Made by a program: the position numbers and the translations under genes
From: a virus
IMG/VR virus record: IMGVR_UViG_3300026119_000010
Span: 1-41,300 of that record
Reading direction: 5' to 3' (one strand)
Length of the DNA stretch: 41,300 bases
Part shown: in pieces, positions 1,947 through 31,557 of the stretch
Layout of the letters: every line of letters starts with the position of its first letter
Numbering within the stretch: position 1 is the stretch's first letter
Notes under the pieces: generated by a model
Seen by the model: only the letters and a program-made list of their open reading frames with translations
What the model was told of the DNA's origin: nothing
Database searches by the model: none

Positions 1947-2279
1947 TTATTCTTCACTGTTGATAATTGAGAGTTTTCCATCCTTCAATTGTTCCTCCAT
2001 AACCTCAACTAATATGTCTCCAATTTTATTTCTAAAATTTTCACTTTTTGTATCTACTTTTTTGAGATTTTTCATAACTTCATAATTAAAACGCAAAGGC
2101 ATTTTACCATTTGCTGTTTCTTCACTTGCAAATTGTACTTTTCCATACTTATAAATTACATCTTTAAATTCACCTTCTGTAATTTTAATACAGGAAAAAT
2201 CATCACCTTCTCTTTGAGCAAAGGTGTAACTTTTACTCTTCGTCTGATCCGTATGTGAATTTTTTGTTTGCGAATTCAT
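1947..2279 (-). CDS. Conserved phage protein between uvsX and gp41, unknown function
   Basis: This 110-aa ORF is not recognised. It is mixed-charge, with no membrane segment or cysteine motif. The centre ([21 protein letters not shown]) looks like beta strands, and the C-terminal 45 residues are likely helical and acidic. The ATG at 2279 gives an unusual 47-base overlap with the end of uvsX. No other in-frame ATG, GTG or TTG lies before the conserved-looking part, so I keep this start; the first 17 residues, which read uvsX codons in another frame, are polar and may be a flexible tail. Its position inside the recombination/replication unit suggests a replication accessory role, but that is context only. 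Confidence 0.7.
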
Positions 2280-3264
2280 CTATTTTTTTTAATACTTCCT
2301 TTGTAAAATACTTATCTGGATTATCATTAATTTGTTTACCAAATACTTTAGAACCATCTGGCATTTCAAATCTAGTTGATACTTTCTTAAAGATACCTGC
2401 CTCTTCTCCTAGTTCTAATAGTCCATAATGCTTATCCAAACCGTGTTTATAAGTTAACTTAACATCCACTTTAGCATTTTCTTTAGTAATTCTTGATTTA
2501 TATATTTTACAATGAATAATATTTCCAATAATCTCGGTACCCAATTTCTCTTTTCGTTTACCAAGATAGATGATTGTTGAAGCAGCGTATTTCAATCCTG
2601 AACCACCACCCATTTCTTTTTGTGGGAACATAGAACCAATCACATCATAAGTATGGTTGGTCATTAACAAAGGAACATTTGCTTGTCCTAGTTTAAGTGT
2701 TAAAACTCTAAATGTAGATTTGACAATTTGTGCCCTTGTCATATCTCTTGTTTCTTTACCTTCTGCTGTGTCTTCCATTTCTTTTGTAGTAGATAACATT
2801 CCTAAACTATCTAACACAAACATTAAAGGTTGTCTGTCTTTTTCTTCTTGTTCTAAATATTTGTCAAGTATTTTTATTGATTGATTTCTAAATTCTTGTA
2901 CAGTTGATACTGGTGCTACTACTACTCTTGTACTATCAACGCCTCTATTTTCAATCATTTCCTTTGATACAGCATTTTCTGATTCAAAAAATATAACTCC
3001 TGAATTTTTATCTTTATCTAAAAAATGTTTAATTATTCCTAATGCGAAAAATGTTTTACCTGTTGCGGCTTCTCCTGCGATTGCAGTAATACGATTGCCT
3101 GGTAACCCACCATAAATTGAACCTGAAAGAAGAGCATTAAAAGAATAGGAACCTGTATCTATATATGAAGTAACATCACCTGCTGTGATACCTTCACTTG
3201 CTAAACTAGCATATTCATTTCCAGTTTCTTTAATAATTTCTTTTAAAAAGTCTTTCATACTCAC
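2233..3264 (-). CDS. uvsX: UvsX, RecA-like strand-exchange recombinase
   Basis: This 343-aa RecA-family ATPase forms filaments on ssDNA and drives strand invasion in recombination-dependent replication. Walker A is GEAATGKT (64-71). Walker B is the hydrophobic run ending in LDSLG (about 147-155). The [10 protein letters not shown] segment (about 205) fits the L2/DNA-contact region. Length is slightly below T4 UvsX (391 aa). Partners are UvsY and UvsW, encoded at 34.5-32.6 kb. A 17-base-spaced promoter lies at 3311-3339. The ribosome site AGGAA sits directly against the first ATG (3264) but 6-7 bases before the third codon (ATG, 3258), so translation may start at 3258. Confidence 0.96.
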
Positions 3265-6857: not shown

Positions 6858-7846
6858 AATAATTGTTTTGTCTTTTTTACACCATTCATATTTGGTTTAA
6901 TTTTCATATTATTTACAAATCTTGCTCTTGTAGTTTGTTCTTGTTCGTCATTTTTATCTACATATGGAACAAATTTTGCAGGTGTATCAGTCATCCATAA
7001 ATCCATAACTGTATTATATCCTGCTTGACTAATAGATAATTTATGCTTAGCAAGTAAATCTCTAAAATTTTTAACATTATAAACTATCTTCACTTTATCC
7101 CATTTATGGAAGATGTATAAAGGTTTTAATATCGGCATTATAACTTTCATCTTCTTCTTATCACTTACCCATTTTAATAATTTTTTTTGATGTTCTTTTG
7201 GGTGGTTAGGACCAACAGAAAACGTCCAATCTGTTCCATCATATAATTCCATTGCCTTATCAAAGCAATCCATTGCAACTCTACCACCACCTGCAGATAC
7301 AACTGTACCATTTCTTTCCTGTGGTTTTGGTTTATATGTGTCAGTTACATAACCTGTATAATAAACAGGTGGATCAATTAAATTTAAATGTTCAAAACTT
7401 TCATCTAACTTAATAAAATTTTTATCTCCGTGTACAAGTATAGCGTCAAAATATTCATTTGCCCAATTAGTAGTTAATGCTGAATAATAATCTGTACCTC
7501 TTTTCTTACTAATATTTTTCCAAGGATAACAAATATCTCTAACAGATGATACAATTTTTACATCTTTCCAATTATTCTTTACAGACTTTAATAAAAATTC
7601 CATACCAGAATCAAACCATTCATATCTCATAAAAGGAAATCCATCCAATAATATAATATCTGGTTTATAATCATTTATTATTTTCAATTGTTTAGCAAAT
7701 ATTGTTTTTCTTTCATCATCCGTAAATGCACCAGTTATATACTCAAACTTACAATCTTTAAGACCTTTTCTTATATTATTACATCTAACATAATGCCCAC
7801 TACCTACTTCACTTTGACAAAAAATATATACTTTAATGTGTGCCAT
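6836..7846 (-). CDS. GT-B glycosyltransferase (MurG/PseG-like)
   Basis: This 336-aa protein starts with a Rossmann segment containing GSGHYVR (15-21), the glycine-rich nucleotide-sugar loop seen in MurG, PseG and predicted GT28-type transferases. The C-terminal half has a conserved acceptor/donor loop, [14 protein letters not shown] (about 272-285), and [17 protein letters not shown] (about 293-309), matching the donor-binding signature of this superfamily. It probably moves a sugar from a UDP- or CMP-donor, or acts as a PseG-like hydrolase. It overlaps the nadA stop by 14 bases. With the deacetylase and epimerase it forms a self-contained glycan cassette. Confidence 0.75.
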
Positions 7847-8789
7847 ATACCATCCTCTCTATCGGTCGCTTTGCTTTTTTCATTATATCATTTGGTATTT
7901 TCACCTCATATGTGTTCATCATTAATGATTGTAATATTCCTGGTAAAGTAATTCTTTTCATATGTGGACACAAATTACAAGGTCTAACAAATTCTACATT
8001 TGGATTTTCTATTGAAACATTATCACTCATTGAACACTCCGTAACCATTAATACTTTACGTGGTTGTTTTTCTTTAACATAATTGCTCATTTTAGATGTT
8101 GAACCTGTAAAGTCCACTTCAGCAATTACTTCTGGTGGACACTCTGGATGTGCTAATATAGTAATGCCTGGATTATCTTCTCTATATTCTCTAATTTCTT
8201 TAGCAGTAAATTTTTCGTGTACTATACAAGTACCGTGCCAAGATATAATTTTAACCTTTGTTTCTTTAGCAACATTTTTAGCAAGGTATTCATCTGGAAG
8301 AAACATAACTCTATCTACTCCCAACGATTCAATTATCTCAACTGCATTGGAAGATGTACAACAAATATCTGTTTCTGCTTTAACTTCAGCAGACGTATTC
8401 ACATAAGTTACCACAGGCACACCTGGGTATTTTTCTTTTAATAATCTTACATCTTTACCAGTAATAGATTCTGATAATGAACAACCTGCTTTAGGGTCTG
8501 GAATTAAAACTGTTTTATCTGGACTCATCAACTTTGCTGTTTCTGCCATAAAATAAACACCACACATCAAAATAGTATCTGCTGTTGTTTTCGCTGCTTC
8601 TTTTGCTAACTTTAAAGAGTCTCCAACTATATCTGCAACACAATGATATATCTCTGGCGTCTGATAATTATGAGCAAGAATAACTACATTTTTTTCTTTT
8701 TTTAATTTGTTAATACTTTCAACATAAGGAGCGTGAAACGGCCACTCAATCTCTGGTATAACTCTTGCTACTTTTTCATATGCACTCAT
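7833..8789 (-). CDS. nadA: Quinolinate synthase NadA
   Basis: This 318-aa protein is full length for NadA, which condenses iminoaspartate with dihydroxyacetone phosphate to quinolinate in de novo NAD synthesis. The ligands of the [4Fe-4S] cluster are in place: C76 ([12 protein letters not shown]), C188 (WHGTCIVH) and C274 (CNLCPHMKR). Other conserved segments are ILAHNYQ (37-43), DSLKLA (57-62), DPKAGCSL (98-105), HPECPPEV (214-221) and TGSTSKM (228-234). No residue expected for activity looks lost. No nadB or nadC is visible, so it would feed the host pathway. It sits 9 bases after a coiled-coil microgene inside the replication unit. Phage acquisition from a bacterium is inferred. Confidence 0.95.
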
Positions 8790-9106: not shown

Positions 9107-9255
9107 ACTTCTAATATTTCCTTTTTAATTTCTTTTAAATCGGTCTCAATACGTTCTAATTTCTTTATCAAAAGTTTAACATCTTCACCAAGACTATCAA
9201 TCTTTTGTAGTGTTGGTAGGAGCTCTAATTCTTTGTCTGATTTATATAAACTCAT
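9103..9255 (-). CDS. Small coiled-coil protein (50 aa)
   Basis: This 50-aa protein is mostly one heptad-patterned helix (ELELLPTLQKIDSLG, then VKLLIKKLERIETDLKEI). The longest ORF starts with TTG at 9297 inside gp43. The ATG at 9255 overlaps the gp43 stop as ATGA and is chosen instead. It opens the three-microgene run between DNA polymerase and nadA. The matching helix in 8799-8984 suggests they could form a coiled-coil pair. No known function. Confidence 0.65.
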   Translation of the reverse strand: MSLYKSDKELELLPTLQKIDSLGEDVKLLIKKLERIETDLKEIKKEILEV

Positions 9256-11738
9256 CCGAAAAATGCCTCCAGATTTGCTCTCTTTTCGTGTTCCCAACCT
9301 ATTGAGTTTAATATAAATCTCATAGGGTCTAGGAAAGTTTTCTCAAATTGTATTTCATAATCAATATATTTCTGTAGATTAAACTCTTTTGGTAATTGTG
9401 TTACATAACTAATCACATCAAACTTAAATGGATTTGCCTGTAACAATTTAATAAATTTAATCTTATCTCCTTCTTGTATATAAGGATACTTATTTTGTAA
9501 TTGAAATTCTTTTATTTGGTGATTATAAATCAACGCACCTTTAACGTGTATTGGTGTACCTTTAATAAACACATCTTTACTACTGCCATATTTTCTCATA
9601 TTATTACAAGACCTTGGAAATGATATCTGCTCAGCAGACATATTCATAAATTCTTTTTTAAAATCTGCAATGAAAATATGTAAATCACTTTCAGATTTAC
9701 TCATTATAATTTTAATTGCCTCTTTAATTTTACCACGGCACACTTGTGGTGTTGATGATTTAATTGCTTCTATACCCATAATCTTTAATTTAGGAATAGA
9801 AAGTCTAACACCTTCCTCATCTAAAACATTTAACATATATCTTTTCTTAGCAACCCATATACCTTTATTCGCAATCACTTCACGTGCCATAACCATTGCG
9901 TTCTTAAATGCGTTAGTATAATCTGATAACTCTTTAAATTGTTTTGCAATAAAAGGTTCTAATTTGTTATCACATACCTTAGCAAGAAAATCACATACTT
10001 CATCATCTGACTTGCCATTACAAACTTGTTTTACTAATGGTTCTAAACATACGTAAATAGAATCTGTATCAGACGCTATAACATAATCTGTATTTTCAGT
10101 TTTTAATATCTTATTTAAATAATCATTTACTTTATTTTCAATAAATCTAATAATAAATTGTCCTGCTGTTGTAATACCACTTGCCTGTCTTACATCATAA
10201 TATCTAAAATACTGATTACCAATTGCACCATAACAACTATTCAATGCAATCTTTCTTGCCCATTGTATGTTATGACACCTTGCAATTTCTTTTGCTAATT
10301 CTTTCGTTGGTTCTTTTTGATATAGTTTTTTCGCTTTCAACTCACGATTTTTATAAACAATACGGTCTTTATATATCTTCTCTACCATTTCAGGTAAGAA
10401 TCCTTGACTATCTCTTTTAAACATTGCACCATTTGGTACAATACAAGCGTCTTTATCTTTTAAAAACTCTAGGGGTGTCTTCTTACTCAACATTTTATTC
10501 ACAGAAACACCAGATGAATTAACACCTAATATTTTTTCGGGAGAAATATTATATTGTACAATAATATGTGGATAAAGAGAGTTGATATCAAAAGACACCA
10601 CCCATTTTTGCATACCAAGTTTAGGCTCTTTTACATAAGCGCCTTCATACTTTGTATCCTTGGAATGTTCTTCCCTAGGAGGTACACAAATATTTTTTTT
10701 CATCAAGTGGTTTGCGATTAAGGTATCCCAAACTCTAACCTGTGAGAAAATATCGTTATAATTTACTTTAGTTTCATATGCAAACGTTAAAGATAAATCA
10801 ATTAAACCTAATTTATCTTCTAATGCGTCAACAATTTCTACGTCTTGGATATTATATTCTACGAATTTTTGAAAATCTTTTGTATAAAAATCTTTAAAAA
10901 TACCATATGGATTTTCACGTTTACTTTCACCTAATTCAACTTCACCTATAAAACCTAATCTATAACTTTCTTGTCTTGCTGGTATAAACCATTTATACAA
11001 ATCAAGATAATCTAACATAGCAATACCATACAAAGTATAATATGTATTAGTTCTACCACGTATAATAATTTGTTCACTAGATATTAAATTCCAAGGTGAC
11101 ATACGACTTGCAACTTTATGACCTACAAGTAATTTTATTCTATTCATTAAATAAGGTAAGTCAAAAAATTTAGTATTCCAACCTGTAATAACATCTGGAT
11201 AATTCTTTAACCAGAATTTCATAAACTCCATTACTAAATGTTTTTCGTCTTTACATTCAATGTAAGTTACATCTGTACGGTCTGTTGTAAATTTACCAAC
11301 ACCCCAAGTTATAATCTGTTTATTGGATTGATTCTTAACACTAATACAAAGTAATTCTTCTATAGGATTATCTACTTCTGGAAAACCATTTTCACAACCA
11401 CACTCTATATCTAATGTAAATATTTTAATTAAATCTTTTGACCATTTAACTTGTTTTGGAAATTCTTTATTAATATATTGATAATGATATCTTTCAAGTC
11501 CATAGATAGGTGAATTTTGAGTTGCGATATCTTTTCTAAATCTACGAGCAGCGTCAATAGATTTAAAAATTATTGGTTTTAAATTTTGACCTTGTAAAGT
11601 TTTAAAATCTGTTTGTTCTTTTGTTAATGAATATAATGTTGGAGAAAAATTAATCTTCTCTTTATACTCCTTGTCATTATGTACACCTCTAACAAGTAAT
11701 TTTCCTTTATATTCTATTACATTTTTATAAAAGTTCAT
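9252..11738 (-). CDS. gp43: Family B DNA polymerase (T4 gp43)
   Basis: This 828-aa replicative polymerase carries all exonuclease and polymerase motifs. ExoI has D110 and E112 (LDIECG). ExoII is GWNTKFFDLPYL (about 190). ExoIII is YNIQDVEIVD (about 294). Motif A is DINSLYPHII (about 383), motif B is KIALNSCYGAIGNQY (about 490), and motif C is the catalytic SDTDS (about 555). The C-terminal tip EAFFG fits a sliding-clamp-binding peptide. It is slightly shorter than T4 gp43 (898 aa). It overlaps the ferredoxin gene by 14 bases. In T4 it is repressed by RegA, also encoded here. Confidence 0.98.
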   Translation of the reverse strand: MNFYKNVIEYKGKLLVRGVHNDKEYKEKINFSPTLYSLTKEQTDFKTLQGQNLKPIIFKSIDAARRFRKDIATQNSPIYGLERYHYQYINKEFPKQVKWSKDLIKIFTLDIECGCENGFPEVDNPIEELLCISVKNQSNKQIITWGVGKFTTDRTDVTYIECKDEKHLVMEFMKFWLKNYPDVITGWNTKFFDLPYLMNRIKLLVGHKVASRMSPWNLISSEQIIIRGRTNTYYTLYGIAMLDYLDLYKWFIPARQESYRLGFIGEVELGESKRENPYGIFKDFYTKDFQKFVEYNIQDVEIVDALEDKLGLIDLSLTFAYETKVNYNDIFSQVRVWDTLIANHLMKKNICVPPREEHSKDTKYEGAYVKEPKLGMQKWVVSFDINSLYPHIIVQYNISPEKILGVNSSGVSVNKMLSKKTPLEFLKDKDACIVPNGAMFKRDSQGFLPEMVEKIYKDRIVYKNRELKAKKLYQKEPTKELAKEIARCHNIQWARKIALNSCYGAIGNQYFRYYDVRQASGITTAGQFIIRFIENKVNDYLNKILKTENTDYVIASDTDSIYVCLEPLVKQVCNGKSDDEVCDFLAKVCDNKLEPFIAKQFKELSDYTNAFKNAMVMAREVIANKGIWVAKKRYMLNVLDEEGVRLSIPKLKIMGIEAIKSSTPQVCRGKIKEAIKIIMSKSESDLHIFIADFKKEFMNMSAEQISFPRSCNNMRKYGSSKDVFIKGTPIHVKGALIYNHQIKEFQLQNKYPYIQEGDKIKFIKLLQANPFKFDVISYVTQLPKEFNLQKYIDYEIQFEKTFLDPMRFILNSIGWEHEKRANLEAFFG

Positions 11739-12063
11739 CTGGTCTCAAATGTAGGATTAAACCATCAAGTTCTTTAGTAAGTTTTATCTGACAAGATAAT
11801 CTACTAATGCCTGGTTTATATCCTTTTTCATATTCTAATTGTTCTTCCTCAAGGGAATTATCATCCATCTTTGGTACTTTATCTATCCATTTTTCATCTA
11901 CATATACGTTACAAGTACAACACAGACAATTACCACCACAATCAGCAGGTATTTCTGGTATATCTACTGGTGATTCAAATTTGGCTGCCTCCATTGCGCT
12001 CAACCCTTCTTTGACTTGAACACGAATTTTGGATCCGTTTCTTACAAAATATACGTCTATCAC
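11725..12063 (-). CDS. [2Fe-2S] ferredoxin, adrenodoxin/ISC type
   Basis: This 112-aa protein has cluster ligands spaced C42-x5-C48-x2-C51-x39-C91 (DCGGNCLCCTCNVYV and RLSCQIKL), the pattern of adrenodoxin-like ferredoxins that serve Fe-S assembly and P450-type enzymes rather than plant-type photosynthetic ferredoxin. It starts with GTG, overlapping the Sm-like gene stop as GTGA. Two more cysteines (C46, C49) lie inside the motif. It could supply electrons for cluster assembly with the nearby Nfu-like protein, or to a phage enzyme. It is probably read from the promoter at 12409-12437. Confidence 0.9.
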   Translation of the reverse strand: MIDVYFVRNGSKIRVQVKEGLSAMEAAKFESPVDIPEIPADCGGNCLCCTCNVYVDEKWIDKVPKMDDNSLEEEQLEYEKGYKPGISRLSCQIKLTKELDGLILHLRPDELL

Positions 12064-12408: not shown

Positions 12409-12437
12409 AATATACACCATTTCTCATCAATTGTCAA
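12409..12437 (-). promoter_or_regulatory. Sigma-70-like early promoter for the Sm-like/ferredoxin/gp43 unit
   Basis: On the minus strand, TTGACA (12432-12437) with a 17-base spacer to TATATT (12409-12414). The -35 overlaps the stop codon of the Nfu-like gene. The leader is about 15-20 bases with a good AAGGAG site. It drives the DNA polymerase gene and whatever follows. Confidence 0.75.
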
Positions 12438-12814
12438 TGCTTATATTCCTCATCAATAAGTCCCTTTAATCTTTTTTCTTCTTCACTATCAAAGTCAGGA
12501 AATTCATTCCTTGGAACAAAAGGTTTATAACCTTGTTCTTCCGCCTTAACATCATCTTCACCAACAATAGCTTTTACTTCTGGAACATAATGCTTTAACA
12601 TTTCTTCTACACTTTTATGTAAGGTCTGTTTAGACATAGCACAACCTGAACAAGCACCTGCCAGTTCTAATTTTGCAACACCTAAATCCATATCAAAATC
12701 TAAATAATTTATAAACCCATTGTGTTGAGCTACAGCAGGGGCTATTTTATCTTCCAAGATAAATTTAATATCCTTTGCTATATCTTCTTTACTTCTTGTT
12801 TCTTCATTTACCAC
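12434..12814 (-). CDS. NifU C-terminal domain (Nfu-type) Fe-S cluster carrier
   Basis: This 126-aa protein is a Nfu/NifU C-terminal domain, with the cluster-binding CxxC at C55-C58 (LAGACSGCAMSKQTL) preceded by NGFINYLDFDMDLGVAKLEL. Such proteins hold and pass [4Fe-4S] clusters to target enzymes. It starts with GTG at 12814, with AAGGAGC 8 bases upstream. The acidic C-terminal 35 residues are an extension beyond the domain. A likely client in this genome is NadA, whose [4Fe-4S] cluster is essential; the host Fe-S machinery is the alternative. Confidence 0.88.
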   Translation of the reverse strand: MVNEETRSKEDIAKDIKFILEDKIAPAVAQHNGFINYLDFDMDLGVAKLELAGACSGCAMSKQTLHKSVEEMLKHYVPEVKAIVGEDDVKAEEQGYKPFVPRNEFPDFDSEEEKRLKGLIDEEYKH

Positions 12815-12836: not shown

Positions 12837-13040
12837 TTAGTTTTTTTGTAAATTTACTGCTGAAGAACCTTTTTCTCCTTCAGTAATTTCAAACGTTAAT
12901 TCATCACCTTCATTTAACTCTAAACTTGCTGCTTGAGCAGCTGAAGAATGTACAAAAACATCTTTTTCTTTGTCTTCTCGTTCTATGAAACCGTAACCCT
13001 TTGTTGGGTTAAACCATTTTACTTTTCCTTTTATACTCAT
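12837..13040 (-). CDS. Cold-shock domain RNA chaperone (CspA-like)
   Basis: This 67-aa protein is a complete cold-shock domain: [14 protein letters not shown] holds the RNP1 motif (KGYGFI, 14-19) and VFVHSS (28-33) is RNP2. It binds single-stranded RNA or DNA and melts RNA structure. The size is that of bacterial CspA/CspE. It lies between the RimK-protease fusion and the Nfu-like gene with short gaps and an AAAGGAG ribosome site. A role in translating structured phage mRNA (for example the hsp20 leader) is plausible inference. Confidence 0.95.
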
Positions 13041-13046
13041 CTTATC

Positions 13047-14453
13047 TTATTTTTCTCCTTTCTTGTCATCTAAACTATATTTTGTTGTTATTATATATTT
13101 TCTATTTGGATTAACCATAACATTAAATCTGTTCATAGTTTCCCTATCAAATAATATTTTTGATTTTTCATCTCTATCATCAAGTGTAAATTCTACATCT
13201 TTATAAACTCCTCCTGCAAAATCTACATCAAGTTTTATCACATATCTTTCTTCTTCATAATCTCTTAAACCACCTACACTAATTTTTTGCTTACGTACTA
13301 TATCATTTGTAAGTGTTTTACCTTCTAATGACCAAGTGATTTTACCACCGCCTTTTTTTATTTTATCAGCGTGTATAACAGACGTGCCTGAATTACCTGT
13401 ATCAAATTTACCTACTATACGTCCAACTGGATGTATATATACAACTTCTTTATATCCACACTCACTAGGTACTTTCTTCCAAGTATCTCTATTTTCAAAA
13501 TGTTGTACTATTTCTTTACTTAAATTTCTTCCTGTTGCCTCTTCAATACCTTCTGTACCTGGAGATGAATTAACCTCAATAACAAATGGTGGATCTTTCT
13601 TTCTATTTTTTGATGGGATAAAATCTACTGCAACCCATTGACCATCTACTGCCTTAGCAGCTTTTAAACTTTCTTCTACTTCTAATTCTGTTAGTTCTAA
13701 TTCTCTTACCTCCGCACCTCTTGATACATTACTTCTAAAATCTCCTGGTACAACATCCCTTCGCATTGACGCTAAAACTTTACCTTGCAATACTAAAACT
13801 CTAGCATCCCAATCTGTTTTAATATATTGTTGTAATAGTATATCAGAATCTTCATCTTGTTTATTGAGTAATTGTACAATTGAATCTAATGATTTTTCTG
13901 ACTCAATGAATAAGACACCTACACCTTTTGAACCTCTTAATGTTTTTAAAATAACTGGAAACTTATCGTTTAATTGTTTAAAAGCTTCCATTGAATTTTC
14001 TGGATCAGTAACTAATACTGATATAGGTTGTTTAATTCCATAATCAGCAAGTCTTAATGAAGTTCTATATTTGTCAGCACATACATTTACACATTGTCTG
14101 CTATTAACTACACACACTACGTGCTTTTCTAATCTTGATATTAAATCTAACCAACTATCTCTACGTACAACTGAACCTCTAATAATAGCAATTGAATCTC
14201 TTGCTGAAACTCTAAACCCTTTTTTATCATCCTTGTTATGGAAATATAACTCACCATCTTCCTCGGTAGTTACATACCCACCAGTATTTCTATAGATATA
14301 TGCCTTATGACCTAACTTTAAGGCTTGTTTCAATAAATTTTTTGCTGTATGGAAATTTAAATCATCTTCAGGTTCATCTGATATAATGATTAATCTGTAC
14401 GGTCCAAAAATTTTAGCTTCTGTTATATAATCTTTGAATTTTGATATCTGCAT
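13047..14453 (-). CDS. RimK-like ATP-grasp ligase fused to a retropepsin-like (RimB-type) protease
   Basis: This 468-aa protein has two parts. Residues about 20-320 are a RimK-type ATP-grasp ligase: the ATP lid (FPVILKTLRGSKGVGV, about 165-180), LLQQYIKTDWDARVLVL, and the metal-binding D277 (VAVDFIP) with E293/N295 (VIEVNSSPGTEGIE). Residues about 335-465 are an aspartic-protease-like domain with DTGNSG (351-356), as in the RimB/ATP-dependent zinc protease family. RimK adds glutamates to ribosomal protein S6 and RimB trims them, so both activities may sit in one chain. Its ATG directly follows the regA stop. Likely role: altering the host ribosome. Confidence 0.88.
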   Translation of the reverse strand: MQISKFKDYITEAKIFGPYRLIIISDEPEDDLNFHTAKNLLKQALKLGHKAYIYRNTGGYVTTEEDGELYFHNKDDKKGFRVSARDSIAIIRGSVVRRDSWLDLISRLEKHVVCVVNSRQCVNVCADKYRTSLRLADYGIKQPISVLVTDPENSMEAFKQLNDKFPVILKTLRGSKGVGVLFIESEKSLDSIVQLLNKQDEDSDILLQQYIKTDWDARVLVLQGKVLASMRRDVVPGDFRSNVSRGAEVRELELTELEVEESLKAAKAVDGQWVAVDFIPSKNRKKDPPFVIEVNSSPGTEGIEEATGRNLSKEIVQHFENRDTWKKVPSECGYKEVVYIHPVGRIVGKFDTGNSGTSVIHADKIKKGGGKITWSLEGKTLTNDIVRKQKISVGGLRDYEEERYVIKLDVDFAGGVYKDVEFTLDDRDEKSKILFDRETMNRFNVMVNPNRKYIITTKYSLDDKKGEK

Positions 14454-28947: not shown

Positions 28948-30004
28948 TTTCTCCTACCTCCGTATATAATTCTTTAGTATAATCTTTTAATTTCTGTTTG
29001 TCAAGGTTGGTATCAAGTTGGTCTATATATTTACCTAAAAACGTAAGTGTATCTTCACCTTGTTCTAATATATCTTCTCTTACACTAGATGTTACATCTC
29101 CTGAATCTTCAAAAATATTTAACTCATATATGTTCAATGTATCATATAGTCTTGCAACAAACTTATCATACATATCATCATCTGTTTTTTGAGATATAAA
29201 CATTTTAATAAAACTATTATCATATCTTTCTATATCTAATTTATTATAATCTGTTTTTGTATCATCATAAACTATTTTCTTAAATATTCTTAATGGGTTA
29301 GATACTCTTGTTAACTCTCTTGTTTGTGTATCAAAAATATGAAACCCTTTTGGGTCTTTATAATCATTCCAAGTTATTTCAAATTGTGTACCTAGATAAT
29401 AAATGTGACCGTCATCTGATTTTTTATGAAAATGTCCTGATATAACTTTTTCAAATCTTTTAAATACAGCTCTATCTAAACCTTGTTCGTTCATAAATCC
29501 TCGGTTCATTTCAAACCCTTTAATTTCTAAATGCCCCATTAAAATTTCAGAATTACTATGTTCAATTGCGTGTATAGATTCATCATAAGTTTCATCACAT
29601 ATCCAAGGCATAAACAAAATATTTAAACCATCAAAGGTAACTTCTTTTGGATTTGCATAAACCCAAGGTTCATTTACACCATCATATGTTGTACAAAGTT
29701 CTGTAATTGCATTTACTTGATTTGTATTCTTATAATATGTATCGTGGTTGCCTAATATAATATGAGTATCAACCTCTTCTTCCCACAATCGTTTCATAAA
29801 TTTTTGCCTAAAAAAATTGGCAGTCTTATAATTTATAAACTTACGTCTATCAACTACATCTCCTAAATGTATTAATGTTTTTATTTTATGTTTTTTTATA
29901 AAAGGAAAAAATATTTCATCATAAAACCTTTGTTGATAATGTGCAAAATGTGGACTATCATTCCGACAACCAAAATGTGTATCATTTAATAGTGCTATTT
30001 TCAT
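28937..30004 (-). CDS. gp47: Recombination nuclease subunit gp47 (Mre11-like)
   Basis: This 355-aa metallophosphoesterase is the nuclease partner of gp46. The five motifs are clear: LLNDTHFG (D8, H10), IHLGDVVDRR (about 45-54), ILGNHDTYY (about 82-90), LMGHLEIKG (about 168) and SGHFHKK (about 195). It forms dimers and resects broken DNA ends. Length is near T4 gp47 (339 aa). The start overlaps the halogenase stop as ATGA. The C-terminal 10 codons overlap the oxygenase gene. Confidence 0.97.
   Translation of the reverse strand: MKIALLNDTHFGCRNDSPHFAHYQQRFYDEIFFPFIKKHKIKTLIHLGDVVDRRKFINYKTANFFRQKFMKRLWEEEVDTHIILGNHDTYYKNTNQVNAITELCTTYDGVNEPWVYANPKEVTFDGLNILFMPWICDETYDESIHAIEHSNSEILMGHLEIKGFEMNRGFMNEQGLDRAVFKRFEKVISGHFHKKSDDGHIYYLGTQFEITWNDYKDPKGFHIFDTQTRELTRVSNPLRIFKKIVYDDTKTDYNKLDIERYDNSFIKMFISQKTDDDMYDKFVARLYDTLNIYELNIFEDSGDVTSSVREDILEQGEDTLTFLGKYIDQLDTNLDKQKLKDYTKELYTEVGENGS
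28976..29004 (-). promoter_or_regulatory. Sigma-70-like promoter inside the end of gp47
   Basis: On the minus strand, TTGACA (28999-29004), 17 bases, TATACT (28976-28981), all within gp47 codons. The leader of about 22 bases contains GGAGGTAGGAG just before the oxygenase ATG. It can uncouple the oxygenase and gp46 from gp47. Confidence 0.65.
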
Positions 30005-31557
30005 TGATAATAATTTTCTAATATAAAGTCGTGATAACTTTGATACTTTTCAGCTGCTTTATTCCACATTTCTTTACGTTTATCTAATTTATTCATATAC
30101 GGTTCCATAAATCCTTTTATTTCTTCTTTAGTCTTATGTGTAAGATATATTAAATTAGGTAAATCTTGTGGTGCCCAATTGAAACCAGCCGCTATATAAT
30201 GTAATCCACTATTACCAGCCTTTTCAGGAGGGTCCACAGTATATTCCCAATTAACAGTTCTTTGTAAACAAATTGCTAAATATCCTTGCAAAATTTTAGC
30301 TTTCATAGTAACTAAACTTTCTTCCCAATCTCTATTGTTATTAGCTTTCCAATATTCAGTATCATTTCTTGTTGATAAAGCATAATGCAACCCAACAAAT
30401 TCAGCAAACCCATAATAGATAGTTTTACAGGCAAATGTGAAGTTGTCTTTGTCCCATTGTGTAATTTCACCTCTTCTTAAATTTCTTACAAGTGCTATTA
30501 AAAATTCGTGTATTGAAAACAAACCATTACTTTCTAATGGTTCAATAAATCCATTAGCTAGACCTATAGCAACTACATTTTTTACAAATAATCTATGGTA
30601 TATACCACACTTCATTTTAATGTTTCTAAATTCGTGTTTTTCAGTACCAAACCCAGGTCGTACCTTTGCTAAATGATTTTTAAATTCTTTTAAAGCAGTT
30701 TTATCATCTACAAATTTATCTGAATAAACATAACCTGCACCAACTCTACTCCACAATGGTATATTCCATACCCAGCCATTTTCTATTGCTGTGCAATTAG
30801 TAAAAGATTCCACTTCTTTAGTTTTATCTACATAAGGTATCTTGGTTACCCACGCTTTATTATTTGGTAGTTTAGGGATAGGTTCAAAAGGTTCTTTTAA
30901 TGCACCTCCTAAAAGCATTGATTTAAAACCTGTACAATCAATAAATAAATCTGCTTTATGTTTGTTTAAGGAAACAATACCATTTTCATCTTGTTTAATA
31001 TCTTTTACATCTTCTTGAATATATTTGACGCCTCTAGGTATACAATAATGATCCTTTAACCATAGACCAAATTTAATTGCGTCAAACTGATAAGCAGAAT
31101 CAGTTGATGTATCAAAACCATAGAATTTATGAGCACCCTTACTTTGATTAACTAGTGCCATAACAGACGAAAAACAATCAGCATAATCTGAAACTGGTGT
31201 TTCTGGATAAAATTCCTTTTTAATCCACCAATCATTATAATTTAATTTAGTTCCTTCTATGGCAGGAATACCAAAAGGATAGTGAAACGGCTCCTCGCCT
31301 TTTCCATTAAAGTCTGTAAACTTAATACTAAATTTAATAGTGCCATCTGTATGTTTTAAAAATTCTTTATCATCTATTCCTAGATAATGTGTCCATTGTT
31401 TAACTTTTGATATTGTACTTTCACCAACTGATATTGTAGGAACTTTAGGTGATTCTAATACAGTTATATCTTTATCAGGAAAAGCTCTTACTAAAGTTGA
31501 AGCTGTCATCCAACCAGCGGAGCCTCCTCCGACTATTAAAATCTTATCACATTTCAT
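30001..31557 (-). CDS. Flavin-dependent halogenase (tryptophan-halogenase family)
   Basis: This 518-aa protein has the two hallmarks of flavin-dependent halogenases: the FAD site GGGSAGWMTA (10-19) and WxWxIP, here GWVWNIPLW (about 257-265). The catalytic lysine expected near residue 75-79 is offered by TIKFSIKF (K75, K79). A second conserved GESTISKV (45-52) follows. Such enzymes make hypohalous acid and halogenate indoles or other aromatics. The marine viral halogenase VirX1 from cyanophage Syn10 is a close functional precedent. Its substrate here is unknown. It sits between gp47 and gp55, with ATGA junctions to both. Confidence 0.9.
   Translation of the reverse strand: MKCDKILIVGGGSAGWMTASTLVRAFPDKDITVLESPKVPTISVGESTISKVKQWTHYLGIDDKEFLKHTDGTIKFSIKFTDFNGKGEEPFHYPFGIPAIEGTKLNYNDWWIKKEFYPETPVSDYADCFSSVMALVNQSKGAHKFYGFDTSTDSAYQFDAIKFGLWLKDHYCIPRGVKYIQEDVKDIKQDENGIVSLNKHKADLFIDCTGFKSMLLGGALKEPFEPIPKLPNNKAWVTKIPYVDKTKEVESFTNCTAIENGWVWNIPLWSRVGAGYVYSDKFVDDKTALKEFKNHLAKVRPGFGTEKHEFRNIKMKCGIYHRLFVKNVVAIGLANGFIEPLESNGLFSIHEFLIALVRNLRRGEITQWDKDNFTFACKTIYYGFAEFVGLHYALSTRNDTEYWKANNNRDWEESLVTMKAKILQGYLAICLQRTVNWEYTVDPPEKAGNSGLHYIAAGFNWAPQDLPNLIYLTHKTKEEIKGFMEPYMNKLDKRKEMWNKAAEKYQSYHDFILENYYQ

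What the first reader, a model, noticed from the sequence alone, without database searches (positions are those of the whole stretch)
13047..14453. RimK-type ligase fused to a retropepsin-like (RimB-type) protease in a phage
Established knowledge: bacterial RimK adds glutamates to ribosomal protein S6, and the aspartic-type protease RimB trims them. Here one 468-aa chain has a complete ATP-grasp site (D277, E293, N295) and a DTGNSG protease-like site (351-356). A phage enzyme that both writes and erases ribosome marks would be a switch for host translation. The bS21, deformylase and cold-shock genes in the same window support a translation theme (inference).
Basis: partly seen in the sequence, partly recalled or inferred. 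Interest (0 to 1): 0.8.

Follow-up and report, generated by a model that had tools for sequence, protein, structure and literature searches.

The report
Phage polyglutamate ligase–protease fusion (RimK–RimB)
Marine T4-like phages carry one protein that joins a RimK-type enzyme, which adds glutamates to protein ends, to a RimB-type protease, which cuts such tails; bacteria have a similar hybrid with the parts in the opposite order, and what the phage version modifies is not known.

Summary
The fusion is real. Window 13047-14453 (minus strand) is one uninterrupted 468-aa ORF: an N-terminal RimK ATP-grasp ligase with its catalytic residues, then a C-terminal single-lobe retropepsin of RimB/RloA type with an intact FDTGN site. 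Profile search, AlphaFold plus Foldseek, and conservation of the residues that hold polyglutamate (K349, R403, R427) agree. The full-length fusion is in 112 distinct marine viral contigs, in cultured pelagiphage Mosig, and in Yersinia phages YerA41 and GN1 (the YerA41 copy was detected in virions). All 115 contigs with upstream sequence have it directly behind regA; gp43 follows in 67 of 69.

A hybrid is already known in bacteria (RimBK, Little et al. 2025), with RimB first. All six bacterial fusions read here have that order; the phage order is reversed and its tree separate, so the fusions look independent.

The proposed S6 switch is unproven and looks weaker after testing: sampled SAR11 genomes (the known host group) have no RimB, no chromosomal RimK, and 13 of 14 S6 tails lack a terminal glutamate. 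Best reading: a self-contained polyglutamate writer–eraser made with RegA, target unknown. New variant of a known kind.

The parts
13047..14453 (-). rimKB: 468-aa fusion of RimK-type ATP-grasp ligase and RimB-type retropepsin
   Evidence: single ORF; PF08443 and PF05618 (20/20 relatives); conserved as a fusion in 112 distinct viral contigs
13479..14396 (-). RimK-type ligase part (residues 20-325: N-lobe and ATP-grasp)
   Evidence: Foldseek best hits are RimK crystal structures 7qys/7qyr, E=7e-22; TIGR00768 167 bits, cut-off 143
13569..13577 (-). ATP-grasp metal/ATP residues E293 and N295 (E-V-N); D277 is at 13623-13625
   Evidence: aligned to RimK D248, E260, N262; invariant
14178..14180 (-). 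R92, equivalent of RimK R64 (polyglutamate contact); a second one, R218 = RimK R189, is at 13800-13802
   Evidence: invariant; contacts from PMC10092738
13071..13469 (-). RimB-type retropepsin domain (residues 329-461), one lobe
   Evidence: C-domain model pLDDT 80; Foldseek hits 2pma (Lpg0085), 9g59 (RloA2), then Ddi1 and retroviral proteases
13392..13403 (-). catalytic D351-T-G-N354
   Evidence: invariant in all 78 sequences that span it
13245..13247 (-). R403, equivalent of RloA R114; R427 (= R137) is at 13173-13175 and K349 (= K46) at 13407-13409
   Evidence: numbering checked as D-2, D+66, D+89 in RloA-type proteins; R403 and R427 invariant; roles from PMC12239564
14454..14924 (-). regA, phage translational repressor, directly upstream (gap 0)
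   Evidence: PF01818 E=1.1e-45; same order in all 115 distinct viral contigs with upstream sequence
9252..11738 (-). gp43 DNA polymerase, downstream in the same direction
   Evidence: 75% identical to Mosig gp43; found downstream in 67 of 69 distinct contigs with over 2.5 kb after the gene
12837..13040 (-). cold-shock protein next downstream (not annotated in the syntenic Mosig locus)
   Evidence: PF00313 E=2.7e-23; Mosig annotation

Best explanation
The gene encodes a self-contained polyglutamate writer-eraser. The N-terminal RimK-type ATP-grasp half uses ATP to add L-glutamates to a protein C-terminus (or to free glutamate chains); the C-terminal RimB-type retropepsin half, active as a homodimer like other retropepsins, cuts chains of several glutamates, limiting their length or removing the mark, and may also tune the ligase as RimB tunes RimK in Pseudomonas. 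It is encoded in the replication operon straight after RegA, so it is probably made while phage replication and translation are being set up. Shown here: the fusion, both intact sites, conservation, synteny, reversed order compared with the bacterial hybrids. Inferred: catalysis, glutamate specificity, dimerisation, timing. Unknown: the acceptor; host S6, another host protein or a phage protein remain possible.
For: Family hits in both halves. Fold matches of both halves. Catalytic residues invariant. Polyglutamate-holding residues of RloA (K46, R114, R137) correspond to K349, R403, R427, the last two invariant and K349 kept in 77 of 78; three RimK contacts (R64, R189, N262) correspond to invariant R92, R218, N295. 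Similar purifying selection on both halves. Fusion kept between T4-like marine phages and the distant Yersinia phages at 31% identity. Bacterial RimB, RloA and the RimB part of RimBK do cut polyglutamate (PMC11957791, PMC12239564).
Against: RimK contacts R8 and S68 are not conserved (D26 or V/A/S/L; V96 and others), so donor or acceptor could differ. The full-length model is moderate (pLDDT 75) and no dimer was modelled. The Melnitz relatives keep only the ligase half, so the protease is dispensable there. I found no biochemical data for any phage member.
Confidence: 0.62

Rival explanations
1. One reading: the protein adds and removes glutamates on host ribosomal protein S6 and so shifts host translation to phage mRNA.
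For: RimK and RimB act on S6 in Pseudomonas (PMC11957791, PMC7343187); coupling to regA, a translational repressor; the YerA41 copy is annotated as ribosomal protein modification protein.
Against: S6-ligase equivalog score far under cut-off; 13 of 14 SAR11 S6 tails read here do not end in Glu; SAR11 has neither rimB nor chromosomal rimK; the bacterial hybrid RimBK was not seen to modify S6. The window phage's own host is not known, so this lowers but does not exclude it.
Confidence: 0.22
2. The ligase marks a phage protein (for example a replication or virion protein with an acidic tail), and the protease trims it during assembly or after entry.
For: YerA41 g112 (= YerA41_066 by gene order, the RimKB homologue) was found in purified particles by LC-MS/MS (PMC7354516); the sampled hosts lack an obvious S6 target; several window proteins end in Glu, e.g. 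UvsX in GSDEE.
Against: Presence in virions may be carry-over of an abundant protein; Glu-ending proteins are common; RegA tails are not conserved among carriers.
Confidence: 0.2
3. It makes and breaks free poly-alpha-glutamate, changing the glutamate pool or osmotic state of the infected cell.
For: RimK makes free polyglutamate and RimB stimulates this in vitro (PMC11957791).
Against: No gene context points to glutamate metabolism; the tight link is to regA and gp43.
Confidence: 0.12
4. The ATP-grasp half ligates something other than glutamate, or the retropepsin half is only a structural regulator of the ligase.
For: RimK R8 and S68 not conserved; the score for MptN (133 bits) exceeds that for the S6 ligase (99.9 bits); Melnitz lacks the protease half.
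Against: The catalytic DTG and the basic pocket residues are kept without or nearly without exception, which a mere regulator would not need.
Confidence: 0.15

Closest known systems
RimBK hybrid of bacteria (Desulfotalea psychrophila DP2392; Little et al. 2025, PMC11957791)
   Same: one chain with a RimB-type retropepsin and a RimK-type ligase; DTG site; many carriers aquatic
   Different: RimB is at the N-terminus there, at the C-terminus here; all six bacterial fusions read here have RimB first, and both halves of the phage protein fall outside them in trees
Separate RimB and RimK of Pseudomonas (RimABK)
   Same: writer and eraser of polyglutamate; same folds; most key contact residues kept
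   Different: two genes, no phage context; the S6 tail ends in Glu in Pseudomonas, mostly not in SAR11
RloA periplasmic retropepsins of P. aeruginosa (9g58, 9g59) and Lpg0085 (2pma)
   Same: closest solved structures of the C-domain by sequence and fold; K46, R114, R137 kept
   Different: secreted and not fused; catalytic loop DTGAKT there, DTGNSG here
Phage RimK alone (cyanophages such as S-RIM8; Methylophilales phage Melnitz)
   Same: phage-borne RimK-type ligase; the Melnitz copy also follows a translational regulator gene
   Different: no protease half; Melnitz groups with the fused phage proteins, so it probably lost it

Membership tests
RimK family alpha-L-glutamate ligase (TIGR00768, PF08443) | curated profile score | tested here: met
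   TIGR00768 167.4 bits, cut-off 143.4; PF08443 129 bits, cut-off 21
RimK family alpha-L-glutamate ligase (TIGR00768, PF08443) | ATP-grasp catalytic residues and fold | tested here: met
   D277, E293, N295 invariant; Foldseek to RimK 7e-22
S6--L-glutamate ligase (RimK proper, NF007764) | equivalog score above cut-off | tested here: not met
   99.9 bits, cut-off 331
S6--L-glutamate ligase (RimK proper, NF007764) | modifies the C-terminus of S6 | not testable with these tools
   13 of 14 SAR11 S6 tails lack a terminal Glu, which argues against it but does not test it
RimB / bacterial retropepsin (PF05618) | curated profile score | tested here: met
   28.1 bits, cut-off 27, in the window; 20 of 20 relatives match
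RimB / bacterial retropepsin (PF05618) | retropepsin fold with DTG | tested here: met
   model matches 2pma, 9g59, Ddi1, HIV-1 and XMRV proteases; FDTGN invariant
RimB / bacterial retropepsin (PF05618) | homodimer with one Asp from each lobe | not testable with these tools
   only one lobe per chain is present, so a dimer is required; no complex could be modelled
RimB / bacterial retropepsin (PF05618) | cleaves polyglutamate | not testable with these tools
   contact residues K349, R403, R427 kept
RimBK hybrid (Little et al. 2025) | RimB domain N-terminal to RimK on one chain | tested here: not met
   order is RimK then RimB

The most novel reading that the evidence does not exclude
Phages bring a complete, single-chain polyglutamylation cycle into hosts that have no such system, built by a fusion independent of the bacterial one and translationally coupled to RegA, to mark and unmark a so far unknown protein during infection; in some phages it is carried in the particle and acts on entry.
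Probability: 0.35. Interest if true: 0.8.

Novelty: new variant of a known kind. Interest (0 to 1): 0.57.

Why it matters
Polyglutamylation of bacterial proteins is known almost only from S6. A phage enzyme that carries both writer and eraser into a host lacking both gives a clean system for asking what else is polyglutamylated: any polyglutamate in an infected SAR11 cell should be the phage's work. The same domain pair fused in both orders, in phages and in bacteria, suggests that keeping writer and eraser together is useful in itself. If the target is the ribosome it would be a phage takeover of translation; if it is a phage protein it would be a new phage protein modification.

Tried and rejected
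Fusion as an artefact of frameshift, stop or misassembly: rejected, the same uninterrupted fusion is in 112 distinct viral contigs and in cultured phages. RegA tail as the acceptor: considered because the window RegA ends in an acidic tail (DGE), but tails of other carriers vary (DE, KEA, KES, PKV, TEV, PQL). The two GTDB hits (Alphaproteobacteria TMED93, Thaumarchaeota SAT137) as cellular homologues: rejected, both contigs carry T4-like clamp-loader, regA and gp43 genes. The one strong RimK in 41 SAR11 genomes: on a phage-like contig. Bacterial-order RimBK in viral contigs: one scan found none. A long frame with PF05618 in one genome (L185/L183) was a RloA-like protein with frame read-through, not a fusion. 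The order of the TMED93 genome (G001) was searched first for S6 tails, then dropped because it did not appear to be SAR11. Not resolved: dimer model, host of the window phage, rest of its genome (the record is a 41-kb fragment).

Full report
WHAT IS THERE. The stretch 13047-14453 is an open frame on the minus strand, 468 aa, without stop or frameshift. Its ATG follows the TAA of regA without a gap. The first 325 residues are a RimK-type ATP-grasp ligase: PF08443 E=1.9e-37, TIGR00768 above its cut-off, Foldseek of the full model against RimK crystal structures 7qys and 7qyr E=7e-22. The remaining part is a RimB-type retropepsin: PF05618 just above its cut-off but matched by all 20 diverse relatives; a profile of the domain finds 9g58 (5e-9), 9g59 (1e-7) and 2pma (3e-5) (a higher-ranked repeat protein, 8prj, is an artefact that sums many 4-bit pieces); the domain model (pLDDT 80) matches 2pma, RloA2 9g59, Ddi1 and HIV-1, XMRV and EIAV proteases. 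It is one lobe, so it must dimerise to be active (established for retropepsins).

IS IT FUNCTIONAL. D277, E293 and N295, and F350-D-T-G-N354, are invariant in every family member that spans them. In RloA the polyglutamate substrate is held by K46, R114 and R137 among others, and R114A and R137A have the strongest effects (PMC12239564). By position relative to the catalytic Asp (D-2, D+66, D+89; checked in RloA-type proteins) and by alignment these are K349, R403 and R427 here; R403 and R427 are invariant and K349 is kept in 77 of 78. In RimK, polyglutamate touches S7, R8, S14, R64, S68, R189 and N262 (PMC10092738). R64, R189 and N262 correspond to invariant R92, R218, N295; S7 is mostly kept (S25), S14 is T36; R8 and S68 are not kept. 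So the ligase pocket is RimK-like with some changed contacts. dN/dS is similar for both halves, mostly near 0.15-0.3.

HOW WIDESPREAD. Among 50,697 phage records the protease half is found only in Pelagibacter phage Mosig and Yersinia phages YerA41 and GN1; all three have the full fusion. The four Melnitz phages of OM43 bacteria have the ligase only and sit inside the fused clade in the tree, a probable loss. In all 115 distinct contigs with upstream sequence regA lies directly upstream, gap -20 to +7 bases, and gp43 lies downstream in 67 of 69 with over 2.5 kb of sequence. In YerA41 and GN1 the gene is elsewhere, next to ribonucleotide reductase. YerA41_066 corresponds by gene order to g112 of the 2020 paper, a middle gene annotated as ribosomal protein modification protein and detected in purified particles (PMC7354516; the numbering match is my inference).

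BACTERIAL COUNTERPART. Little et al. [quoted passage not shown] In 299 genomes of the phylum of L084's MAG, 97 have PF05618; the six true fusions I read all have RimB first. Trees of each half place the phage proteins apart from bacterial RimK, RimB and RimBK (small sample, FastTree supports 0.93-0.998 on the separating branches). The reversed order and the separate clades point to an independent fusion. A scan of viral contigs with bacterial RimBK found none.

THE S6 QUESTION. The closest cultured phage, Mosig, infects Pelagibacter HTCC1062. I located SAR11 genomes by the 16S SAR11-441 probe sequence (from my own knowledge) and searched 41 of that family. PF05618: none. PF08443: the only strong RimK is on a phage-like contig; the rest score far lower and have the lengths and sequences of other ATP-grasp enzymes, those read being glutathione-synthetase-like. 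Of 14 S6 proteins whose ends were read, 13 end in K, N, D or I, and one in a single Glu after lysines (FEKKE); none has the terminal acidic pair of E. coli or Pseudomonas S6 (E. coli and Pseudomonas tails). Little et al. also did not see S6 glutamylation by RimBK and point out that S6 without a C-terminal Glu implies other targets. The S6 switch is therefore possible but not the default. The window phage's own host is unknown, so this argument rests on relatives.

MECHANISM. Most likely the ligase half extends a C-terminus, or free chains, with glutamates, and the protease half, paired with that of a second chain, cuts them, as in Pseudomonas where RimB both trims and stimulates RimK. Joining the two fixes their ratio and keeps them close. 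Position behind regA suggests expression with the replication proteins. Target: unknown; rivals and refutations are listed in their sections.

NOVELTY. I found no paper in the library that names RimK together with pelagiphages; the Melnitz paper does not mention RimK, and the Mosig record calls the protein putative glutathione synthetase. Given RimBK, this is a new variant of a known kind: the first phage-borne ligase-protease fusion of this type that I could find described or not, with the domain order reversed.

Noticed in passing
L259:2962-3396 (LR756502.1, 642-kb uncultured phage): A stand-alone RimB-like retropepsin ORF (KVDTGAYGTALH) in a huge phage, without a RimK next to it.
   Followed up: partly
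L260:1882-3474 (LR756501.1, 735-kb uncultured phage): A RimK-like ATP-grasp domain at the end of a long frame with roughly 250-300 extra N-terminal residues.
   Followed up: no
L219:1195-2100: A RimK gene on a phage-like contig binned into a SAR11-family genome, next to phosphoribosyltransferase-like and nucleosidase-like genes; outside the fused family in the tree.
   Followed up: partly
L084 and L085: Two GTDB genomes (Alphaproteobacteria TMED93, Thaumarchaeota SAT137) contain T4-like phage contigs with clamp-loader, regA, rimKB and gp43 genes: likely mis-binning or infection.
   Followed up: yes
L216:5566-5940: In YerA41 a gene annotated as mono-ADP-ribosylating toxin lies four genes after rimKB.
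   Followed up: no
window 7833-8789: The translation looks like quinolinate synthase (NadA), a NAD biosynthesis gene unusual in a phage; by eye only.
   Followed up: no
window 30001-31557: The translation looks like a flavin-dependent tryptophan halogenase; by eye only.
   Followed up: no
window 12434-12814 and 11725-12063: A NifU-like protein (PF01106) and a 2Fe-2S ferredoxin-like protein lie between the cold-shock gene and gp43.
   Followed up: no
window 2233-3264: The UvsX-like recombinase ends in GSDEE, resembling the acidic end of E. coli S6; a possible but untested acceptor.
   Followed up: no
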